Shown piece after piece: positions 30,335 to 39,583 of a DNA stretch of 64,000 nucleotides. The DNA lies in NCBI GenBank assembly GCA_947367055.1, contig CANBCI010000001.1:186001-250000 (forward strand). Direction: 5' to 3'. The notes beneath the pieces are model-generated. The model did not search any database. It was given only the letters and a program-made list of their open reading frames with translations, and was not told the DNA's origin. This DNA comes from an uncultured Alphaproteobacteria bacterium. GTDB lineage: Bacteria > Pseudomonadota > Alphaproteobacteria > Rs-D84. Position 1 is the stretch's first letter. Each line of letters starts with the position of its first letter. The position numbers and the translations under genes were made by a program.

Positions 30335-30733
30335 ATGACCAAGGCACTTACATTATGGCAGCCGTATGCGGCCGCAATTGCATGCGGATTAAAGCAGTAT
30401 GAAACGCGCAGTTGGGCGACAAAGTACCGTGGGCCGTTGCTGATACACGCATCAATGCGGCAATTGGACCGGGCGGGGCGCGAACTGGTCGAAAAATACA
30501 ATATATTGGCGCCTGCGCGCCAAACGGGTGAATTTGTTGCGATATGCGACCTTGCAGATTGCATTGAAATGACGTCAGAATTTATCGCCGAACAAAGCGA
30601 AACCGAACAAGATTTTGGAATCTGGACCGTTGGGCGATATGCCTGGAAACTGGAAAACATTCGGCCATTGACGGATGGCGTAAAATCCCGCGGATATCAG
30701 GGATTATGGAATGCGCCATATCCCATGCAATAA
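30335..30733 (+). CDS. ASCH-domain protein
   Basis: 'MTKALTLWQPYAAAIACGLKQYETRSWATKYRGPLLIHAS' ASCH signature, 'GYQGLWN'. Confidence 0.8.
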   Translation: MTKALTLWQPYAAAIACGLKQYETRSWATKYRGPLLIHASMRQLDRAGRELVEKYNILAPARQTGEFVAICDLADCIEMTSEFIAEQSETEQDFGIWTVGRYAWKLENIRPLTDGVKSRGYQGLWNAPYPMQ

Positions 30734-30802
30734 TCATAACCTGTCGTTCATACCGTACAAACCAACAGTGCTATGCCATTCGTCAGATCCACAGGGCCTT
30801 TT

Positions 30803-31063
30803 TCATGACAATATGTAACAGATACCCGACTCAGCGGTATGATTTCGGTCAAAATGCTTTTGGTTAGTGAAACGGCGTTCCATGCTGCGACATATATTCC
30901 GTCGTTTATAATCGCATTTAATGCCGCCATTATCTGATTCAGAATGATGAGATTCTGCCATAGCCGTTGACACGTATGTTTGCATAACATTGTCGTATCT
31001 TTCATGGTTAGTATGACACGCCGCCAACGACGCACAAATGGCAATAAATAGTAGCTTTTTCAT
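30803..31063 (-). CDS. Putative small lipoprotein, possibly frameshifted
   Basis: Lipobox MKKLLFIAICASLAACHT; downstream half looks more protein-like in the overlapping frame (30748..31044). Confidence 0.4.
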   Translation of the reverse strand: MKKLLFIAICASLAACHTNHERYDNVMQTYVSTAMAESHHSESDNGGIKCDYKRRNICRSMERRFTNQKHFDRNHTAESGICYILS

Positions 31064-31065
31064 GA

Positions 31066-31479
31066 TTATTTTTCCAACTTTTTTGCTTTATCCTTTACTG
31101 ACGGCATAACACACATACCGGCAATGAACCAATCTATACATGCCATTAGCCATCCAATCGCATTCAAGTCTTCTTCATAATATCTGTTTTCCCAGTTTAA
31201 CAAATCAATTCCTGTAATAAATATCCCCGCCACAATCGGAATCCATATCGGCATTTTCATATCATTAAAGCGACGAACGGTTAAAGAAATATTGGGGACA
31301 ATTATAACCAAATCAAATAAAATACGCATTTCTGTTGGCGTTTTGGCTTCCATCATTCCGAGCAAAATCCATATTATCGCCAAAAATAATTGGGCATATC
31401 AAAATTCAGACCGTGACGCCCGCCCTTTAAATTGAAAGTAATTTTTCCAAAATGCACCGATTGAATCTAAAAAAGTCAT
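31066..31479 (-). pseudogene. DUF805 family membrane protein interrupted by in-frame TGA
   Basis: From ATG 31479: MTFLDSIGAFWKNYFQFKGRASRSEF*YAQLFLAIIWILLGMMEA...; stop TGA at 31399-31401 sits where DUF805 proteins have Trp (RxSRSEFW). Confidence 0.75.
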
Positions 31480-31490
31480 TTTTCTCCTTT

Positions 31491-32495
31491 TTATTGGTAT
31501 ATTTGTTGATGAAATTCCTGTTCTGAATTTTTTCTAAAATCAGCCAAACCTCTATAAAATTTTATATTGTCAACAGAGTCTGTGGGCTCTATGATTTTTA
31601 ACGTGGTAAGTTCATTAAATGCATTTTCGCTGATTTGTTTGGGTAGCATGCAGTTTTTCTGGTCTTTTTTTGTCCACGGCAATCCCTTGAGTTTATTACG
31701 TTCCTTTTCTCGTCTGCAACGTTCCGCATGATTATATTGTTTTTCTAATGATGCTTTATAATTTATACAAGATATGGTTTCGTCTTTAATGGCATGATAT
31801 ACGGTATACTCCGTTTCTCGACGAAAACAAATATGTTTGGTTTTATCTAGAATATTACGATTTATATAATAATCAATATACTCTTTCCAAGGATTAAACT
31901 TATAATCGATTTTTGTCATATATGCACATCCTTGCCCATTTATAAACGCATAGGGTTGATGCAATGCGTTAGGGTTTATTGGCGGACAATACTCTCTGGT
32001 TAACTCTGGACATTCATCATCAAGAGCAAAGTATTTAGGATCTTCATCTTTTGAACGAACAATAACCCGAGTAGATACGACCCGACAAGTATCCAATTTA
32101 ATAGGTATCAAATTATATCGGAATAATTCAATGTCGTTTAAATGAGTATCAATCGCATAGAAAAAGTACCCGTCTTCATTGTCAAGAACATCATATAAAG
32201 TAAATATTGAAATATCTGCGGGCTTATCTTGTTGTATAATATGCAAGTTTTCGCTGTCATGTTCAATAGATTCATTCTCATTTAATGGGTCTATAACAAC
32301 AAATGCTATAACAACAATTAGCGTCCCCATAAAAAGCAGCCCAGTCCATTTCAAATATTCAAAATATTGTTGTGTAAAACCTTTGAATGCTAACTTATCG
32401 CCTAGCAAATAGTCTAATAATCCTTGGAATAGACAGAAAATTAACCCTGAGATAAGAATAGTTATAATAATTGCACACACTATTATCATTATCAT
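31491..32495 (-). CDS. Hypothetical membrane-anchored protein
   Basis: 334-aa ORF with two N-terminal TM segments and several Cys in the C-terminal region. Confidence 0.6.
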   Translation of the reverse strand: MIMIIVCAIIITILISGLIFCLFQGLLDYLLGDKLAFKGFTQQYFEYLKWTGLLFMGTLIVVIAFVVIDPLNENESIEHDSENLHIIQQDKPADISIFTLYDVLDNEDGYFFYAIDTHLNDIELFRYNLIPIKLDTCRVVSTRVIVRSKDEDPKYFALDDECPELTREYCPPINPNALHQPYAFINGQGCAYMTKIDYKFNPWKEYIDYYINRNILDKTKHICFRRETEYTVYHAIKDETISCINYKASLEKQYNHAERCRREKERNKLKGLPWTKKDQKNCMLPKQISENAFNELTTLKIIEPTDSVDNIKFYRGLADFRKNSEQEFHQQIYQ

Positions 32496-32497
32496 GA

Positions 32498-32914
32498 TTA
32501 TTTAGTCTCTTGTTTTTGTGGTAATAATAAGCATGTTATAAACACAATGCCGTCGGCTATAAAAGTGCACCATGCCAATTTATTCATAGGATTATCGGAG
32601 CATGTGTTCTCATAATTAAAAAAGTCCAGGGCCGTTGTTATAATGCATACCCAGAATCCAACAATTCCTGGCAGTCCAATATCATTAAACCGTCTTGAAA
32701 CTAATGATGCATATGGAATAGCGGATATTGCAGAAATAAGAAGAATCAATTTGTTTAGATTGCCGTTAGGCGCTATAAACAGCATCGAAAAATATAATAA
32801 CAATGTCACCACAAATAAAAATAATACAGAATAAAAATATTCTAATCGTGATGATGTTGTGCCTGCGTCTAGAGCCTTTGTCCACAAATCAACAGAACTA
32901 CTGATAAATCCCAT
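32498..32914 (-). CDS. DUF805-like membrane protein
   Basis: 'TTSSRLEYFYSVLFLFVVTLL' and 'SRRFNDIGLPGIVGFWV' DUF805 pattern. Confidence 0.65.
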   Translation of the reverse strand: MGFISSSVDLWTKALDAGTTSSRLEYFYSVLFLFVVTLLLYFSMLFIAPNGNLNKLILLISAISAIPYASLVSRRFNDIGLPGIVGFWVCIITTALDFFNYENTCSDNPMNKLAWCTFIADGIVFITCLLLPQKQETK

Positions 32915-32932
32915 TTTTTCCCTTTTTGTTAT

Positions 32933-33118
32933 TTATTCTTCATATAGCCACTTATGACCTGACTGTTCGACGGATATAGTTTCAATGTTTTCTATTGTTG
33001 GTTCATTTGCAAAAAGAGATTGTGCTGACTCAAAAGGCACACGATCCCATATTTGGGTAACTAGCTTTAATATAAGGAAAGTTGCTACCATATAAGAGGT
33101 AGAATATTTGTTTTCCAT
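32933..33118 (-). CDS. Hypothetical small protein
   Basis: 61-aa ORF within a same-strand cluster; low intrinsic evidence. Confidence 0.35.
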   Translation of the reverse strand: MENKYSTSYMVATFLILKLVTQIWDRVPFESAQSLFANEPTIENIETISVEQSGHKWLYEE

Positions 33119-33149
33119 TAGATAATCTTTTTTATTATATTGTTTTTAA

Positions 33150-33407
33150 TTACCATATGCCCGGTTGAGGCATATTTTGATCACCCGCAGACACATCTGT
33201 GTTTATAGAACTCCCTTGAGACGCTATATTACGAAGCAGCATGTGTGCAGCGTATTCCTCTGCTGCCTTTTGCCGATTCCGTTCTTGTATATGATTAACC
33301 AACAACCAACAGGCTAGTATTCCAATAGCAACAACTATCAATTTCCCATTTGAACTCAGCCCATTAAACCAGTTTTTTGCATCATCAATAACAGAATTTG
33401 TCGCCAT
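33150..33407 (-). CDS. Hypothetical small membrane protein
   Basis: 85-aa ORF with RBS 'aaaggagcat', one TM helix. Confidence 0.55.
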   Translation of the reverse strand: MATNSVIDDAKNWFNGLSSNGKLIVVAIGILACWLLVNHIQERNRQKAAEEYAAHMLLRNIASQGSSINTDVSAGDQNMPQPGIW

Positions 33408-33418
33408 AATATGCTCCT

Positions 33419-33748
33419 TTAGTCGGCTAAAATTTCTTTACGCAGTTTTTTGTATTCTTTGTCTGAAATAACTTTGTTTTTGTGTAATTCAGATAGTTGT
33501 TTTAATCTTTCCAAGTCTGTCGGCGCTTCGTCTTTTGAAATCCAATCATCGCTATGCCACAAAAGCGCCAAGCCCAAAGCTATAAACCATGTAATGCCAT
33601 AAAATAATAATCCGCACCACGACAAAATAGCAATTGTTGTAAGTTCTGAACCTGTAATTCCGCGATTTTTAGCAATGTTTATTGGTATCTGAACAAGCCA
33701 AAAAACAAAGATTAAAATTATCACAAATATGAGTATCAATAATCCCAT
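33419..33748 (-). CDS. Superinfection-immunity-like membrane protein with C-terminal SHOCT-like motif
   Basis: Two TM helices; C-terminus 'DLERLKQLSELHKNKVISDKEYKKLRKEILAD' matches SHOCT pattern. Confidence 0.6.
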   Translation of the reverse strand: MGLLILIFVIILIFVFWLVQIPINIAKNRGITGSELTTIAILSWCGLLFYGITWFIALGLALLWHSDDWISKDEAPTDLERLKQLSELHKNKVISDKEYKKLRKEILAD

Positions 33749-33770
33749 ATAATCCCCCTTTTTGTAATAA

Positions 33771-33795
33771 AAAGACCGTCATTGGATTGACGGCC
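33771..33795 (-). terminator. Putative terminator
   Basis: GCCGTCAATCCAATGACGGTC followed by TTTTTATT on the minus strand. Confidence 0.5.
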
Positions 33796-34101
33796 GGGGT
33801 GGTTCGAAAATCATCTTATCATTGATTCCATTGGTCTTTCGGATAAAGCCGTATTTTATAACCAACAGCCCCCCGACCTCTTTACAGTCAGGGACAAATA
33901 ACGATGTCAAAACACAGAAAACATATCGGATTAACGATGTCCTACTGCGTTGCACCGGATAAGATAGGCTTTCGACAGCCCCGAACACGTTTCCCAACGG
34001 GTTCATTAAAAATCCTAATAAAAGCGCCGAAAAAAATCAAGCGATTTTATGCGCGCATCAAGGTCTGAAACGGCAAAATCTTTAATTGTAATTATTTTTA
34101 A

Positions 34102-34142: not shown

Positions 34143-34219
<77 letters not shown>

Positions 34220-34223
34220 GTTT

Positions 34224-34246
34224 TCCCCGGCACGCCGGGATTTTTT
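34224..34246 (+). terminator. Terminator following the reconstituted tRNA
   Basis: CCCGGcacgCCGGGattttttatt. Confidence 0.65.
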
Positions 34247-34630
34247 ATTGCCTGCATCATACAAAATTTTTCCGTTTGCCATGATCGGCATTAATAATAG
34301 TTCATAAAAAACGTTGAATATTCAAAATATTAGGCCACGCTTCATTATACAAGTAAGCATATAATGACACACGAAAAGAAAATATCTGATTACCCGGATA
34401 ATATATTTAAGTCAATCAGAACTTTTATCCGAAACATCAGGAAAGGATCAAACTATCCCAAGAAGAGGAAAGAAAAGCACATAAAAAGAGTGCAATCAAA
34501 TAAATCCCACCTCAATCCCGGCACAACGTTATTTTAACACCAACTCCCACAATCTGCGCCATTTTACAAATGCAATTTTAATAATAAATATATGGATTTA
34601 TTTCAAGGTATTATTCTATAATCAGCCTAA

Positions 34631-35674
34631 ATGATAACTACTAGAGATTATATGTTCAATATAGAAAACAGACGTTATGTAGGCAATAAATTCAAGTTGA
34701 TGAATTGGATACAGTCAACTATGGATCAAGAGTGCCCTAACTGCGACTCTATATTTGATGTATTTGCAGGGACTGGCGCCGTATCAAGATGCCTGTTAGA
34801 TAGATATAATTCATTTATTATAAATGACTTTCTATATTCAAATGAGGCCATTTATCGTGGTTTTTTTGAAAATTCAAAATATTCTAAAAACAAAATAAAC
34901 GAGCTAAAAACAAAATATAACTCCCTTGATCTGAACCAAAACACATATTCTAATTACGTATCAAACAACTATGGTAATAAGTTTTTCTCATTACACGACG
35001 CGCTAATAATTGGTTATATCAGGCAGGATATTGAGGATTTATATACATCAAATCAACTATCATCAAAAGAATACTATATTCTTTTAGCATCACTATTATA
35101 TTCAGCGGACAGAATCGCCAATACTGTTGGACATTACGATGCATATATAAAAAACAAACTTATCCGTGGTGGATTTGTTTTTGATTTAATTTCTCCACTC
35201 AATGTCAAAAACAAGAAAATACAAATTTTTCGTAAAGATTCTAATGAACTAGCAAAACATATCAAATGCGATATTGCTTTTATTGACCCACCCTATAATA
35301 GTCGTCAATACAGCAGATTTTACCATGTGCTAGAAACAATAACAAAATGGGATAACCCAGAATTATATGGGACGGCCATGAAGCCAAAAGAAGAGAACAT
35401 GTCTGAATATTGCAAATCTTCTGCCCCAAAAGCATTTGAAGATCTTATAAAAAGCATTTCAGCTAAATATATAGTAGTGACATATAATAACACTTACAGC
35501 TCAAAAAGTTCTTCCTCACAAAACAAAATTACTTTTGAACAAATAAAACAAATTTTAGATGAAAGGGGCCAGACAAAACTCTTTGAAAAACCTTATAGAT
35601 TTTTCAACGCGGGAAAAACAGACTTTTCCGACCACAAAGAATTCTTATTCATAACAAAGGTGGGGCAGCAATGA
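34631..35674 (+). CDS. D12-class N6-adenine DNA methyltransferase (M1)
   Basis: 'NRRYVGNKFKLMNWI', 'IFDVFAGTGAVSRCLL', 'AFIDPPYNSRQYSRFYHVLE'. Confidence 0.9.
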   Translation: MITTRDYMFNIENRRYVGNKFKLMNWIQSTMDQECPNCDSIFDVFAGTGAVSRCLLDRYNSFIINDFLYSNEAIYRGFFENSKYSKNKINELKTKYNSLDLNQNTYSNYVSNNYGNKFFSLHDALIIGYIRQDIEDLYTSNQLSSKEYYILLASLLYSADRIANTVGHYDAYIKNKLIRGGFVFDLISPLNVKNKKIQIFRKDSNELAKHIKCDIAFIDPPYNSRQYSRFYHVLETITKWDNPELYGTAMKPKEENMSEYCKSSAPKAFEDLIKSISAKYIVVTYNNTYSSKSSSSQNKITFEQIKQILDERGQTKLFEKPYRFFNAGKTDFSDHKEFLFITKVGQQ

Positions 35675-36576
35675 TAAACAGCAATATTATTCGATCCCCA
35701 TTCTTCTATATCGGTGATAAATTCAAACTTATTTCGCAAATAAAGCAATCGTTTCCTAAAAAGATAAATCGGTTTATAGAACCTTTTTGTGGTGGCGGTA
35801 GCGTATTCCTTAATACAGATGCTAATGAATATCTTATAAATGATATAAATTCTTATATGATTCAACTTCACAATATGCTGATACAAAGTAGCCACGATGA
35901 GAAGTTTTTTTGGGATAACATAAAAAGACTAATAGAAGAATACGGGCTTTCTGCAACATTTTTAAATAAAGATATTCCAACAGAATATAGACAGCTTTAT
36001 AAGAAAACATATTTTGCTAAATATAATAAAGACTCTTATACAAAGTTGAGAGCCGATTTCAATAAAGATAAATCAGATATGATACGTCTATATCTTCTAT
36101 TGATATATGGATTTAACAGGATGTTAAGATTTAATGCAAAAGGCGATTTTAACCTTCCTGTTGGCAACGTAGATTTTAATAGTAATGTTGAAAAAGCGCT
36201 CCATGATTATTTTAATCTGGTAAAAAATAAAAATATACATACATACAACATGGATTTTTTAGATTTTCTCAATCTTGCCAATCCAACCACAGAAGATCTC
36301 GTATACTTAGATCCGCCATATTTAATTACATTTAGCGAATATAATAAATTATGGAATAATTTAGATGAAATACGAATGTTAAAAACACTGGACAAGTTAG
36401 ACAAGATCGGCGTAAAATTTGCTATATCAAACGTCATTTGGCACAAAAACCGATATAATGCAATATTTAATGAATGGGCCAAAAATTATAATATTAAAAA
36501 AATAAAAAGTAATTACATAAGCTATCACGATAATACAGAAAAAGACTCATATGAAGTGTTAGTTACAAACTTTTAA
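35671..36576 (+). CDS. Dam-like D12-class N6-adenine DNA methyltransferase (M2)
   Basis: 'RSPFFYIGDKFKLISQI', 'FIEPFCGGGSVFLN', 'YLDPPYLITFSEYNKLW'; ATGA overlap with M1. Confidence 0.93.
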   Translation: MINSNIIRSPFFYIGDKFKLISQIKQSFPKKINRFIEPFCGGGSVFLNTDANEYLINDINSYMIQLHNMLIQSSHDEKFFWDNIKRLIEEYGLSATFLNKDIPTEYRQLYKKTYFAKYNKDSYTKLRADFNKDKSDMIRLYLLLIYGFNRMLRFNAKGDFNLPVGNVDFNSNVEKALHDYFNLVKNKNIHTYNMDFLDFLNLANPTTEDLVYLDPPYLITFSEYNKLWNNLDEIRMLKTLDKLDKIGVKFAISNVIWHKNRYNAIFNEWAKNYNIKKIKSNYISYHDNTEKDSYEVLVTNF

Positions 36577-36589
36577 AAAGGATCAAGAT

Positions 36590-38161
36590 ATGACAAGAGA
36601 GCACAATAGACAATTTAAGCCATTATCTTTTTCTACCACCATGCGAAACCCAGAAAGAATCGTCGATTTCTTAAAGTATCTATTACCATTTGAAGGCCAA
36701 AAACTAGATAATAACATAATAGACCAAGTCGTTATCTCTTTGATACAAAACAAAATATATAAACCCACAATCATAAACAAGGTAGCAAAGTATCGCACAG
36801 CATTTAACGCCTCAGAACCATTTAGTAGAAAAATGGCAGAAGAAATTATGCAAAAAAGCCCTCAAAAGCACAAAGAAGCGGGATTCGACAAAGGTTGGCC
36901 TTCCAGATTTGATACATGGTATAAACTTCCCATGGAATTTGGTTTTATTTTTTATGAAATGAATAAAACAATTAAATTTTCTACCACAGGACATATGCTT
37001 ATAGAATCTCTAAGCGATGAAACGTTTGACGAACAGAAAATACAAAAAGTATTTCTTAATGCCCTTATGAAATACCAAACGCATAATCCTTTTAGGAAAA
37101 ACGCCAATACAAATGCCCCATTACCTCTTTTATTAAACGTCATAAAATTGCTAAAAGAAGACCCAGAAGAAAATGGAGCAGGAATTTCTAGAGGAGAGCT
37201 ATCTTTTATTATATGTTCTCCAAACAATGATGCACATGCTATTTATAACCAAATTAAATCATTACGCAAAAAATACGGTTTTACTTATAGCGATGAAGTT
37301 ATTTACGATATTTGCTTAAAAATTCTTGGCGCAACAGAAGCCCAACACAACCGATTCAAAATATCTCATATAACCGGTGAAGCTGTCGATGATTTTATAA
37401 GAAAAATGAGAATTACAGGTATTGTTTCTTTGCGTGGCCAAGGAAGGTTTATCGATTTTAACTCTTTTGAAAAAGAAACTATAGATTACGTAATTAAAAA
37501 ATATACTAATTACCATTCTTTTGAAACGAAAGAGGCATATTTTGACTATATGGGACAGATAGATAGCAATATCTTATCAGCAAAAAAAACCGATGCAACC
37601 GTAGCAAATGATGTACGCCAAAAAACTTTATCTTTTTGGGCGATCAATAAATCGCCTGAGTATATTGCATCAGAACTGAAAATAATTTCTAAAAAAGACG
37701 AAAGTAAAGACGATGTGTTAAAATACATATCAAAGCCAACACGTCTAGAATTTTTAACAAGTATTTTGCTGAAACAGAGATTTCCAGATATGGATATTAA
37801 ACCGAATTACAGTGTTGATGACGAAGGTTTTCCAATATTCACTGCTGCCGGCGGTATGGCCGATATAGAGTGTTTTGACACTGATAATAATCCATTGATA
37901 GAGGTCACTCTTACAACTTCTAGAAATCAATCTAGCACAGAAATACCGGCAATTACACGTCATCTGCAAGAAGCAAGGGACAAGTATCCGAACAAATATG
38001 TATTTTCTATATTTGTTGCACCAACTATACACCCGGATAGCATCTATATGACAGAATTTTCTAAATCAAGATACAATGTTGATATTTTTCCCTGCTCTAT
38101 AGATGAATTTATATTAAAAACATCTAACATAAAGCAATTAAAACAAATGGTTTCTTTATAA
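36590..38161 (+). CDS. AlwI/BstNBI-family Type II restriction endonuclease
   Basis: N-terminal 'FSTTMRNPERIVDFLKYLLPFEGQKL', C-terminal 'AAGGMADIECFDTDNNPLIEVTLTTSRNQSSTEIPAITRHLQEARDKYPNKYVFSIFVAP' resembles remembered N.BstNBI/BspD6I C-terminal region. Confidence 0.85.
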   Translation: MTREHNRQFKPLSFSTTMRNPERIVDFLKYLLPFEGQKLDNNIIDQVVISLIQNKIYKPTIINKVAKYRTAFNASEPFSRKMAEEIMQKSPQKHKEAGFDKGWPSRFDTWYKLPMEFGFIFYEMNKTIKFSTTGHMLIESLSDETFDEQKIQKVFLNALMKYQTHNPFRKNANTNAPLPLLLNVIKLLKEDPEENGAGISRGELSFIICSPNNDAHAIYNQIKSLRKKYGFTYSDEVIYDICLKILGATEAQHNRFKISHITGEAVDDFIRKMRITGIVSLRGQGRFIDFNSFEKETIDYVIKKYTNYHSFETKEAYFDYMGQIDSNILSAKKTDATVANDVRQKTLSFWAINKSPEYIASELKIISKKDESKDDVLKYISKPTRLEFLTSILLKQRFPDMDIKPNYSVDDEGFPIFTAAGGMADIECFDTDNNPLIEVTLTTSRNQSSTEIPAITRHLQEARDKYPNKYVFSIFVAPTIHPDSIYMTEFSKSRYNVDIFPCSIDEFILKTSNIKQLKQMVSL

Positions 38162-39073
38162 GTGAGGAATATTATGGCTAGCAAATTTGTAACAAATGTA
38201 GAATCTATATTATCAAAATATCCAGATAAGCAATTCACAGCAAAGGAATTGGCGAACCTTATACTTAATGAAGGGAAATCATATTTATCAAAAAGAAAAG
38301 ATTTCGGGGTAAAAACCACAGAACAATTACAAGAACAACTTGTCAGGGAGATTTATGCAGCAAACTCGTCCGATAGCTTTTCTGAAAATATAAAAGCAAC
38401 AAGTGATACCCCAAAGAAATTCTATTTTTATAATACAAAAGAACAAGATATTATAGAATCTGATGTAGAAGAAACATCATTACAAGAAAAAGAACTTTAC
38501 CCTATATTATGTGAATATTTATCCAATGTATTGCGAATATACCCTAAGCGGATTGACGAGAAAAGATCTTCAAATACATACGGCAAAAATGGAAATAAAT
38601 GGTTACATCCAGATATTGTCGGTCTTCAAATTGTATCTGAATCATGGAACGAAGAAGTAAAAAAGTGTATTAAATTGCATGGGGAACCCCAGATAAGCTT
38701 ATGGTCTTTTGAAGTTAAACGGAAAATCACACGTTCAAATGTTCGCAAAACCTTCTTTCAAACTGTTTCTAATTCATCGTGGGCCAATAATTCCTATTTA
38801 GTTGCTGTAGATATTGAAGATAAGGCTTTAGCAGAATTACAAATATTGTGCAAGGGACATAAAATTGGCGTTATTCAACTTAATACAAAAGACCCAAATG
38901 ATAGTCAGATACGCATTCCAGCAATAGAAGATTATGAACTTGATTGGGGTATAATAAACAGAATCTGCCAAACAAATACCGACTTTAAAGATTATGTAGA
39001 AAAAATCAGTGAATTTTACCAAACAGGTAAAATCAAGAAAGCTGAATGGGATATAAATAACAAATATGATTAG
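38162..39073 (+). CDS. HrgA-like (COG2958) protein: N-terminal HARE-HTH, C-terminal PD-(D/E)xK-like domain
   Basis: N-terminus 'ESILSKYPDKQFTAKELANLILNE' HARE-HTH-like; 'LHPDIVG...SLWSFEVKRKI' gives D-(~35 aa)-ExK pattern. Confidence 0.75.
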   Translation: MRNIMASKFVTNVESILSKYPDKQFTAKELANLILNEGKSYLSKRKDFGVKTTEQLQEQLVREIYAANSSDSFSENIKATSDTPKKFYFYNTKEQDIIESDVEETSLQEKELYPILCEYLSNVLRIYPKRIDEKRSSNTYGKNGNKWLHPDIVGLQIVSESWNEEVKKCIKLHGEPQISLWSFEVKRKITRSNVRKTFFQTVSNSSWANNSYLVAVDIEDKALAELQILCKGHKIGVIQLNTKDPNDSQIRIPAIEDYELDWGIINRICQTNTDFKDYVEKISEFYQTGKIKKAEWDINNKYD

Positions 39074-39130
39074 AAATACATATTTATCTTGGATGAGCTA
39101 TATCATTTCTAATTTGTGGCAAACAATTTC

Positions 39131-39174
39131 CAAGATTATTGTATTCTTTAAGATTATAGTTCAATAATCTTTTA
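39131..39174 (+). terminator. Possible terminator after the restriction operon
   Basis: AAGATTATTG-20 nt-CAATAATCTT followed by TTTTAAGG. Confidence 0.35.
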
Positions 39175-39189
39175 AGGTTATTATCAATC

Positions 39190-39440
39190 TCACTTTTGTA
39201 CAGCCAATTCTAACTTTTGCATAGATTTACGGACGGCGTCGGCTGACAATCCGGGGTAAACAAAAGTGCGTTATTGGATTTATACCACAGAAACTTGCCG
39301 ATCATGCTTGTGCTGGCACCCGTTATGGCTTAATAACTACCCCTTGTGCGATGCAGGTCATGCTGGCACAGATTTTCTATTCCGGCACGTGTCAACAAAT
39401 CCCCCACGGTCTTTTCGGATATTCTAAATGGCTCTATTTG
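39190..39440 (-). pseudogene. C-terminal remnant of a tyrosine-recombinase integrase
   Basis: Minus strand: QIEPFRISEKTVGDLLTRAGIENLCQHDLHRTRGSY*AITGASTSMIGKFLWYKSNNAL then -frameshift- LSADAVRKSMQKLELAVQK*; contains HxLxRT and GKxLGHKS-like motifs, one TAA and a frameshift. Confidence 0.8.
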
Positions 39441-39552
39441 CTACCATTTTTGATTAATTTATATTAAACTCACATCCAGACACAATTCGCAGAAAATCAA
39501 AGAAAATTTAGAATTATTTATCACAATTTATCGTCTGACCCATTAACTGAAA

Positions 39553-39583
39553 GTCTGTGGTTCAAATCCACACTCCGCAACCA
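39553..39583. repeat. attR: 31-bp duplicate of tRNA-fMet 3' end
   Basis: Identical to 34189-34219; a further 15 bp upstream match 12/15. Confidence 0.9.

What the first reader, a model, noticed from the sequence alone, without database searches (positions are those of the whole stretch)
34631..39073. Four-gene defence system: two adenine MTases + AlwI/BstNBI-type nuclease + HARE-HTH/PD-(D/E)xK HrgA-like protein
Genes are tightly packed (ATGA overlap M1/M2; 13-bp and <15-bp gaps after). Two D12-class MTases fit an asymmetric recognition site needing one enzyme per strand. The AlwI/BstNBI family includes strand-nicking large subunits that need a second small nuclease subunit (e.g. BspD6I). The downstream protein carries a DNA-modification-associated HARE-HTH plus an 'HPDIVG...FEVK' nuclease-like motif, so it may be the second-strand nuclease or a modification-sensing effector. 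HrgA is known as a restriction-linked gene of unknown role in Helicobacter pylori.
Basis: partly seen in the sequence, partly recalled or inferred. Interest (0 to 1): 0.8.

Follow-up and report, generated by a model that had tools for sequence, protein, structure and literature searches.

The report
AlwI-type restriction island with HrgA nuclease
A gut alphaproteobacterium carries, on a small island inserted at a transfer-RNA gene, an ordinary two-methylase AlwI-type restriction system followed by an uncharacterised predicted nuclease (HrgA) that turns out to be an interchangeable companion of many unrelated restriction systems rather than a missing half of this enzyme.

Summary
The four ORFs are real, intact and packed as described. 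M1 and M2 are D12 adenine methyltransferases and R is a full-length AlwI-family endonuclease. This trio is an ordinary AlwI-type Type IIS system. It occurs without any HrgA on plasmids of Staphylococcus, Leuconostoc, Macrococcoides, Enterococcus, Apilactobacillus and Helicobacter, and in a genome of the same genus. So R probably does not need HrgA, and the "second-strand nuclease" idea is not supported. The fourth gene is an HrgA homologue. Its C-terminal domain models as a PD-(D/E)xK fold (pLDDT 91, pTM 0.89), with P146, D147, E180 and K182 invariant in 76/76 homologues. Its N-terminus models as a winged helix but does not match the HARE-HTH profile. HrgA homologues lie beside Type I systems in 38/80 sampled loci, Type III in 6/80 and AlwI-type in 1/80; many stand alone. 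Two same-genus genomes share a 94%-identical hrgA segment at one locus but carry different Type I systems beside it. The cluster lies on an integrase-less 5,364-bp island (34220-39583) in tRNA-Met, bounded by 31-bp repeats; a relative has the empty site. Best reading: a complete Type IIS system plus an independent nuclease, probably a Type IV-like sensor of modified DNA (inferred).

The parts
34143..34219 (+). tRNA-Met (CAT); its 3' end is the left attachment site (31-nt core 34189-34219)
   Evidence: ARAGORN; direct repeat D1; relative G045 has the same tRNA at an empty site
34220..39583 (.). 5,364-bp island inserted at the tRNA-Met 3' end; no integrase; lower GC than the DNA to its right
34631..35674 (+). 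M1, D12-class N6-adenine DNA methyltransferase (347 aa), DPPY motif intact
   Evidence: PF02086 2.4e-30; PDLC03373 420 bits
35671..36576 (+). M2, Dam-family D12 N6-adenine DNA methyltransferase (301 aa), overlaps M1 by ATGA
   Evidence: PF02086 1.2e-37; TIGR00571 157 bits, above cut-off; PDLC03383 354 bits
36590..38161 (+). R, AlwI-family Type IIS restriction endonuclease (523 aa); E387, D425, E438, E451 invariant in 9/9
   Evidence: PF09491 6.6e-39; PDLC03507 589 bits; BspD6I small and large subunits in PDB; alignment A4
38174..39073 (+). HrgA homologue (299 aa): winged-helix N-terminus (1-89) and PD-(D/E)xK-like nuclease domain (105-299)
39531..39583 (+). right attachment site: partial tRNA-Met 3'-end copy (31-nt exact core 39553-39583); the DNA beyond matches the empty-site relative

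Best explanation
The cluster is a self-sufficient AlwI-type Type IIS restriction-modification system (M1 and M2 each methylate adenine on one strand of a short asymmetric site; R cuts unmethylated sites) plus a separate, swappable accessory nuclease, HrgA, delivered together on a small tRNA-Met island. HrgA most likely works on its own as a Type IV-like enzyme: its winged-helix domain recognises DNA with modifications that protect phages from classical restriction, and its PD-(D/E)xK domain cleaves that DNA, closing the gap left by whichever R-M system it accompanies. Shown: gene content, intact catalytic motifs, island boundaries, occurrence of the R-M trio without HrgA and of HrgA without R, HrgA's linkage to several R-M types. 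Inferred: nuclease activity, modification sensing, the trigger (probably not plain 6mA, since this genome encodes a CcrM-like MTase, M1, M2 and a Type III-like Mod), and the phage-defence role.
For: Trio identity. Trio without HrgA on plasmids of six genera, some whole plasmids only 10-11 kb (no HrgA by tblastn), and in same-genus G135. AlwI itself is one R (GGATC 4/5) with two MTase activities, one per strand (PMC4081073). HrgA loci: 38/80 beside Type I genes (33 with at least two subunits), 6/80 Type III, 1/80 AlwI; phylum sample 4/14 beside Type I against 0/20 control regions. All four HrgAs found among 201 genomes of the order sit beside R-M genes of different kinds. G027 and G031 share hrgA DNA at 94.6% ending at its start, with unrelated DNA beyond. 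PD-(D/E)xK topology and invariant P146, D147, E180, K182; fold hits MspJI, NucS, NucC, FokI. CcrM-like MTase in the own genome, Type III-like Mod. Literature proposes HARE-HTH-REase fusions as modification discriminators (PMC10853773).
Against: Fold-search E-values are weak (0.036 at best, TM about 0.3-0.4), so the nuclease fold rests on topology plus conserved motif. The N-terminus does not match HARE-HTH by profile, so modification sensing is inferred from domain type. No activity data for any HrgA were found. Frequent tight packing with R-M genes (gaps of -4 to about 20 nt) could mean a closer functional tie than mere co-residence. Two of three full-length AlwI-type R genes in the order have HrgA next to them, more than chance would give.
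Confidence: 0.55

Rival explanations
1. One reading: R is a BspD6I-like nicking large subunit and HrgA is the small subunit that cuts the second strand, so the four genes form one heteromeric restriction enzyme.
For: Tight gene order and 12-nt gap; R's catalytic domain matches BspD6I small and large subunits in PDB; HrgA has a nuclease-like domain.
Against: M1-M2-R occurs as a unit without HrgA in many lineages; R scores 589 bits on a restriction-enzyme model against 113 and 22 on nickase models; BspD6I's small subunit resembles R's own catalytic domain whereas HrgA does not resemble R; HrgA is mostly found with Type I systems or alone.
Confidence: 0.05
2. HrgA is a post-cleavage or entry-degrading helper: it degrades DNA ends or stalled complexes produced by whichever R-M system is next to it, enhancing restriction without sensing modification.
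For: Association with different R-M types and tight packing between S and R or after R; retained while the R-M partner is exchanged.
Against: Many copies, including the closest relatives outside the genus (49-54% identical), have no R-M gene detected nearby; Type I, III and IIS enzymes leave very different ends; a winged-helix DNA-binding domain is conserved.
Confidence: 0.2
3. HrgA is a passenger: defence genes accumulate in the same mobile islands, and HrgA has no functional tie to R-M systems or to modified DNA (a stand-alone nuclease of some other trigger).
For: Solitary copies; other defence genes such as SMODS CD-NTase or YhcG also lie beside it; genus relatives carry it on phage-like elements with terminase and serine recombinase genes.
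Against: Type I genes are by far the commonest neighbours (32-34 loci for each subunit; the next family 9) against 0/20 controls; packing is often at operon distance.
Confidence: 0.2

Closest known systems
AlwI Type IIS R-M system (GGATC 4/5)
   Same: AlwI-family R with two adenine MTase activities, one per strand of an asymmetric site (PMC4081073)
   Different: MTases are separate genes here (fused in AlwI); recognition sequence unknown; HrgA gene attached
R.BspD6I / BstNBI (nicking large subunit plus small subunit)
   Same: Shared catalytic domain with R
   Different: Weak similarity only; no small-subunit homologue in the genome; HrgA is unrelated to R's catalytic domain by profile
HrgA of Helicobacter pylori / Campylobacter Cj1602, R-M-linked gene of unknown role
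   Same: Helicobacter plasmid genes annotated HrgA share the nuclease domain (32-33% identity); reported in R-M loci (PMC4615327, PMC4687069)
   Different: In H. pylori it replaces the R gene hpyIIIR; here it follows an intact R. The N-terminal domain is diverged
HARE-HTH-REase fusions of Dnd and BREX neighbourhoods (PMC10853773, PMC12839542)
   Same: HTH plus PD-(D/E)xK architecture in defence loci, proposed to discriminate modified DNA
   Different: The window protein lacks a PF05066 match; linked to classical R-M, not Dnd or BREX
Type IV modification-dependent nucleases (e.g. MspJI; wH-fusion endonucleases of PMC11037411)
   Same: Proposed way of working; MspJI is the top fold hit of the C-terminal domain
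   Different: Modification dependence of HrgA untested; no sequence match

Membership tests
AlwI-type Type IIS R-M system | RE_AlwI-family endonuclease with intact catalytic residues | tested here: met
   PF09491 134 bits; PDLC03507 589 bits; E387, D425, E438, E451 invariant in 9/9; their match to BspD6I catalytic residues is from memory plus the alignment
AlwI-type Type IIS R-M system | Two adenine MTases, one per strand | tested here: met
   Two D12 MTases; same trio in relatives. Strand specificity itself not testable
AlwI-type Type IIS R-M system | Cuts both strands outside an asymmetric site | not testable with these tools
   Needs biochemistry or a methylome
BspD6I/BstNBI heterodimeric nickase | Separate small subunit homologous to the large subunit's catalytic domain | tested here: not met
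   Only one AlwI-family chain in the own genome; HrgA and R profiles unrelated
HrgA family | Homology to proteins annotated HrgA over the length of the protein | tested here: met
   38-43% identity over 94-98% of the query to plasmid homologues, several annotated HrgA
HARE-HTH proteins (PF05066) | N-terminal match to the HARE-HTH profile | tested here: not met
   No hit in the window protein or its N-terminus; hits only in more distant homologues. The model shows four helices and a two-strand wing
PD-(D/E)xK nuclease superfamily | alpha-beta-beta-beta-alpha-beta core with conserved PD...(D/E)xK | tested here: met
   Topology and pLDDT 91; P146, D147, E180, K182 invariant in 76/76; weak fold hits to PD-(D/E)xK enzymes
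Type IV (modification-dependent) restriction | Cleaves modified DNA only | not testable with these tools
   Functional inference only
tRNA-site integrative island | Flanking repeat of the tRNA 3' end and an empty site in a relative | tested here: met
   53-nt repeat with 31-nt exact core; precise empty site in G045
tRNA-site integrative island | Own integrase | tested here: not met
   No integrase ORF in the island; only two tyrosine recombinases in the genome, both elsewhere and of XerC/XerD size

The most novel reading that the evidence does not exclude
HrgA is a general-purpose companion nuclease of restriction-modification systems: a conserved module that stays in place while its R-M partner (Type I, IIS or III) is exchanged, giving each a second, modification-sensing line of attack against phages that evade restriction. 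This would be a two-layer R-M/Type IV pairing spread over roughly 4% of sampled genomes of this phylum, with no curated Pfam, NCBIfam or PADLOC model found for it here.
Probability: 0.3. Interest if true: 0.65.

Novelty: new variant of a known kind. Interest (0 to 1): 0.45.

Why it matters
HrgA has been listed for two decades as a gene that replaces a restriction gene in H. pylori, with no known role. Here a nuclease active site is predicted, its independence of any one R-M type is shown by counts, and a natural partner swap (same hrgA, different Type I system) is found. That makes its role directly testable in laboratory E. coli and points to a defence-gene family that the annotation libraries searched here miss. 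The restriction trio itself is ordinary.

Tried and rejected
Single-sequence search of genome contigs with HrgA found nothing; the alignment query did. HrgA against PDB by sequence found nothing. Full-length HrgA fold search was diluted by its two domains, so the C-terminal domain was modelled alone. Profile comparison of the N-terminus with two HARE-HTH homologues was inconclusive. No HrgA or R in phage records. The 44 E. coli genomes sharing 97 nt of an hrgA have no full match; in the one inspected an IS903 transposase gene lies just after the match, so no intact copy to study. Rejected: HrgA as BspD6I-type small subunit (see rivals). Thought unlikely: plain 6mA as the trigger, because the host encodes a CcrM-like MTase as well as M1 and M2. 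The recognition sequence could not be predicted; restriction avoidance was not computed because the island looks recently acquired. The Pfam hits RlmN_N and Forkhead on HrgA homologues are below cut-off and treated as winged-helix noise. Promoter and terminator scans gave no more sites than shuffles.
Full report
Observation. The window carries four intact + strand ORFs: M1 34631-35674, M2 35671-36576, R 36590-38161 and HrgA 38174-39073 (in-frame GTG at 38162). M1 and M2 overlap by ATGA, R follows M2 by 13 nt, and HrgA follows R by 12 nt with a GAGGA motif before its ATG. M1 and M2 are D12 adenine methyltransferases and R is an AlwI-family endonuclease; all three match full-length Type II models in PADLOC. 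HrgA matches no curated Pfam, NCBIfam or PADLOC family, nor do its homologues at a convincing score.

The trio is a complete, ordinary Type IIS system. On plasmids of Staphylococcus, Leuconostoc, Macrococcoides, Enterococcus and Apilactobacillus the order is M1-M2-R, and on Helicobacter plasmids M2-R-M1, mostly with the same tight packing and with no HrgA (tblastn). Two of these plasmids are only 9.8 and 11.4 kb long. A genome of the same genus (G135) carries M1-M2-R at 62, 50 and 51% identity, also without HrgA. The AlwI system itself pairs one R with two methylase activities, one per strand (PMC4081073). R scores 589 bits against a restriction-enzyme model and 113 and 22 bits against nickase models. 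Its catalytic domain aligns with the BspD6I subunits, and E387, D425, E438 and E451 are invariant among nine relatives. The genome has no second AlwI-family chain that could serve as a small subunit.

HrgA as a protein. An AlphaFold2 model from 76 homologues has mean pLDDT 87; the C-terminal domain alone has pLDDT 91 and pTM 0.89. Its order alpha, beta, beta, beta, alpha, beta, with P146-D147 before the second strand and E180-x-K182 in the third, is the PD-(D/E)xK core (a further helix lies between the second and third strands), and these four residues are identical in 76/76 sequences. Foldseek's leading PDB hits are mostly PD-(D/E)xK enzymes (MspJI, NucS, NucC, FokI), but with weak E-values from 0.036 upwards. 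The N-terminus models as helices plus a two-stranded wing. It does not hit HARE-HTH; two homologues with the same nuclease domain do (Leptospira, Persicobacter). So 'HARE-HTH' should read 'winged helix, possibly HARE-HTH-derived' for this protein.

HrgA is not R's partner. Profiles of HrgA's nuclease domain and of R do not match. In 80 loci from the genome collection, 38 have Type I genes within the fetched flanks (33 with two or more subunits), 6 have Type III genes, and 36 have neither (Pfam checks; some of these contigs are short, so this is a lower bound on linkage). One of the 36 (L024, the same contig as G138) has an AlwI-type system convergent with HrgA. In Proteus and Vibrio plasmids the order is M-S-HrgA-R. 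The sample is the 80 best of 572 matches, so it is not random. An evenly drawn set of 399 genomes of the phylum gave HrgA in 16 and R in 2; of 14 such HrgA loci (the window and G138 left out), 4 had Type I genes nearby against 0 of 20 control regions taken from five of the same genomes.

Partner exchange. Among 201 genomes of the order, four have HrgA, all beside R-M genes: the window (AlwI-type, tandem), G138 (a different AlwI-type system, R 26% identical, convergent), G027 and G031 (two Type I systems). These four HrgAs form one group in the tree (SH-aLRT 99, quick search; long branches are present, so the grouping is provisional). G027 and G031 share the same locus: 94% identical DNA over a terminase region and 94.6% over hrgA, the second match ending at hrgA's start, with no DNA similarity in the R-M genes beyond it. 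On the tree of 83 sequences the neighbour label needs 15 changes. Of three full-length AlwI-type R genes in the order two have HrgA; by hand the hypergeometric chance is about 0.0009, so the link is not pure chance, but it is to R-M systems in general.

Island. The tRNA-Met gene 34143-34219 has a partial copy of its 3' end at 39531-39583, 89% over 53 nt with an exact 31-nt core. In relative G045 the tRNA is followed directly by the sequence that follows the right copy in the window. The insert is therefore 34220-39583, 5,364 bp, and its coding part runs at 28-35% GC against mostly 41-54% to the right. It has no integrase; the genome's two tyrosine recombinases are elsewhere and of XerC/XerD size. 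In G138, G027 and G031 HrgA instead lies on phage-like elements with a terminase, DUF5681 and a serine recombinase; no such genes were found in the window.

Mechanism. Shown: gene content, motifs, boundaries, occurrence of R without HrgA and of HrgA without R. Inferred: HrgA cuts DNA and is triggered by modification. A Type IV-like role would explain why it accompanies any R-M type and also stands alone, since modified phage DNA evades them all. Plain 6mA is an unlikely trigger because this genome encodes a CcrM-like methylase (426 bits to CcrMI), M1, M2 and a Type III-like Mod. Papers propose a modification-discriminating role for HARE-HTH-REase fusions (PMC10853773) and suggest that HARE-HTH senses cytosine modification (PMC11037411); both are proposals. 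H. pylori hrgA replaces hpyIIIR (PMC4687069), and in a Campylobacter comparison (C. upsaliensis, C. cuniculorum) hrgA flanks a Type II R-M system (PMC4615327). The original hrgA and HARE-HTH papers were not held.

Host.

Verdict. Observation confirmed with one correction; interpretation partly supported. The R-M trio is ordinary. The interest lies in HrgA as an unmodelled, swappable R-M companion nuclease.

Noticed in passing
window 30719-34095: A low-GC stretch of about 3.4 kb directly upstream of the tRNA-Met promoter, with small hypothetical genes, is also absent from relative G045, where the flanks join directly; a second insertion, or a deletion in G045.
   Followed up: partly
L134 (G138), L135 (G027), L136 (G031), L190, L191: Same-genus relatives carry hrgA with different R-M systems on phage-like elements holding DUF5681, a terminase large subunit and a large serine recombinase; looks like a defence hotspot on a phage or satellite element.
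   Followed up: partly
L049:6144-6989 and four similar loci: A SMODS (CD-NTase) gene lies immediately upstream of hrgA, 11 nt away in L049, between HsdR and HrgA; possible CBASS genes nested in a Type I locus.
   Followed up: no
L060:7936-8988 and eight similar loci: A YhcG-type PDDEXK nuclease gene (PF06250) lies near hrgA, in L060 directly downstream of it within a Type I locus.
   Followed up: no
L188 (E. coli D4) and 43 other E. coli genomes: E. coli genomes match only the first 97 nt of an Escherichia hrgA; in D4 this follows AAA-ATPase and TPR genes and an IS903 transposase gene starts just beyond.
   Followed up: partly
L013, L014: Helicobacter plasmids carry the AlwI-type trio in the order M2-R-M1 instead of M1-M2-R.
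   Followed up: no
window 34364-34537: A 57-codon ORF between the tRNA and M1 inside the island, no function assigned.
   Followed up: no
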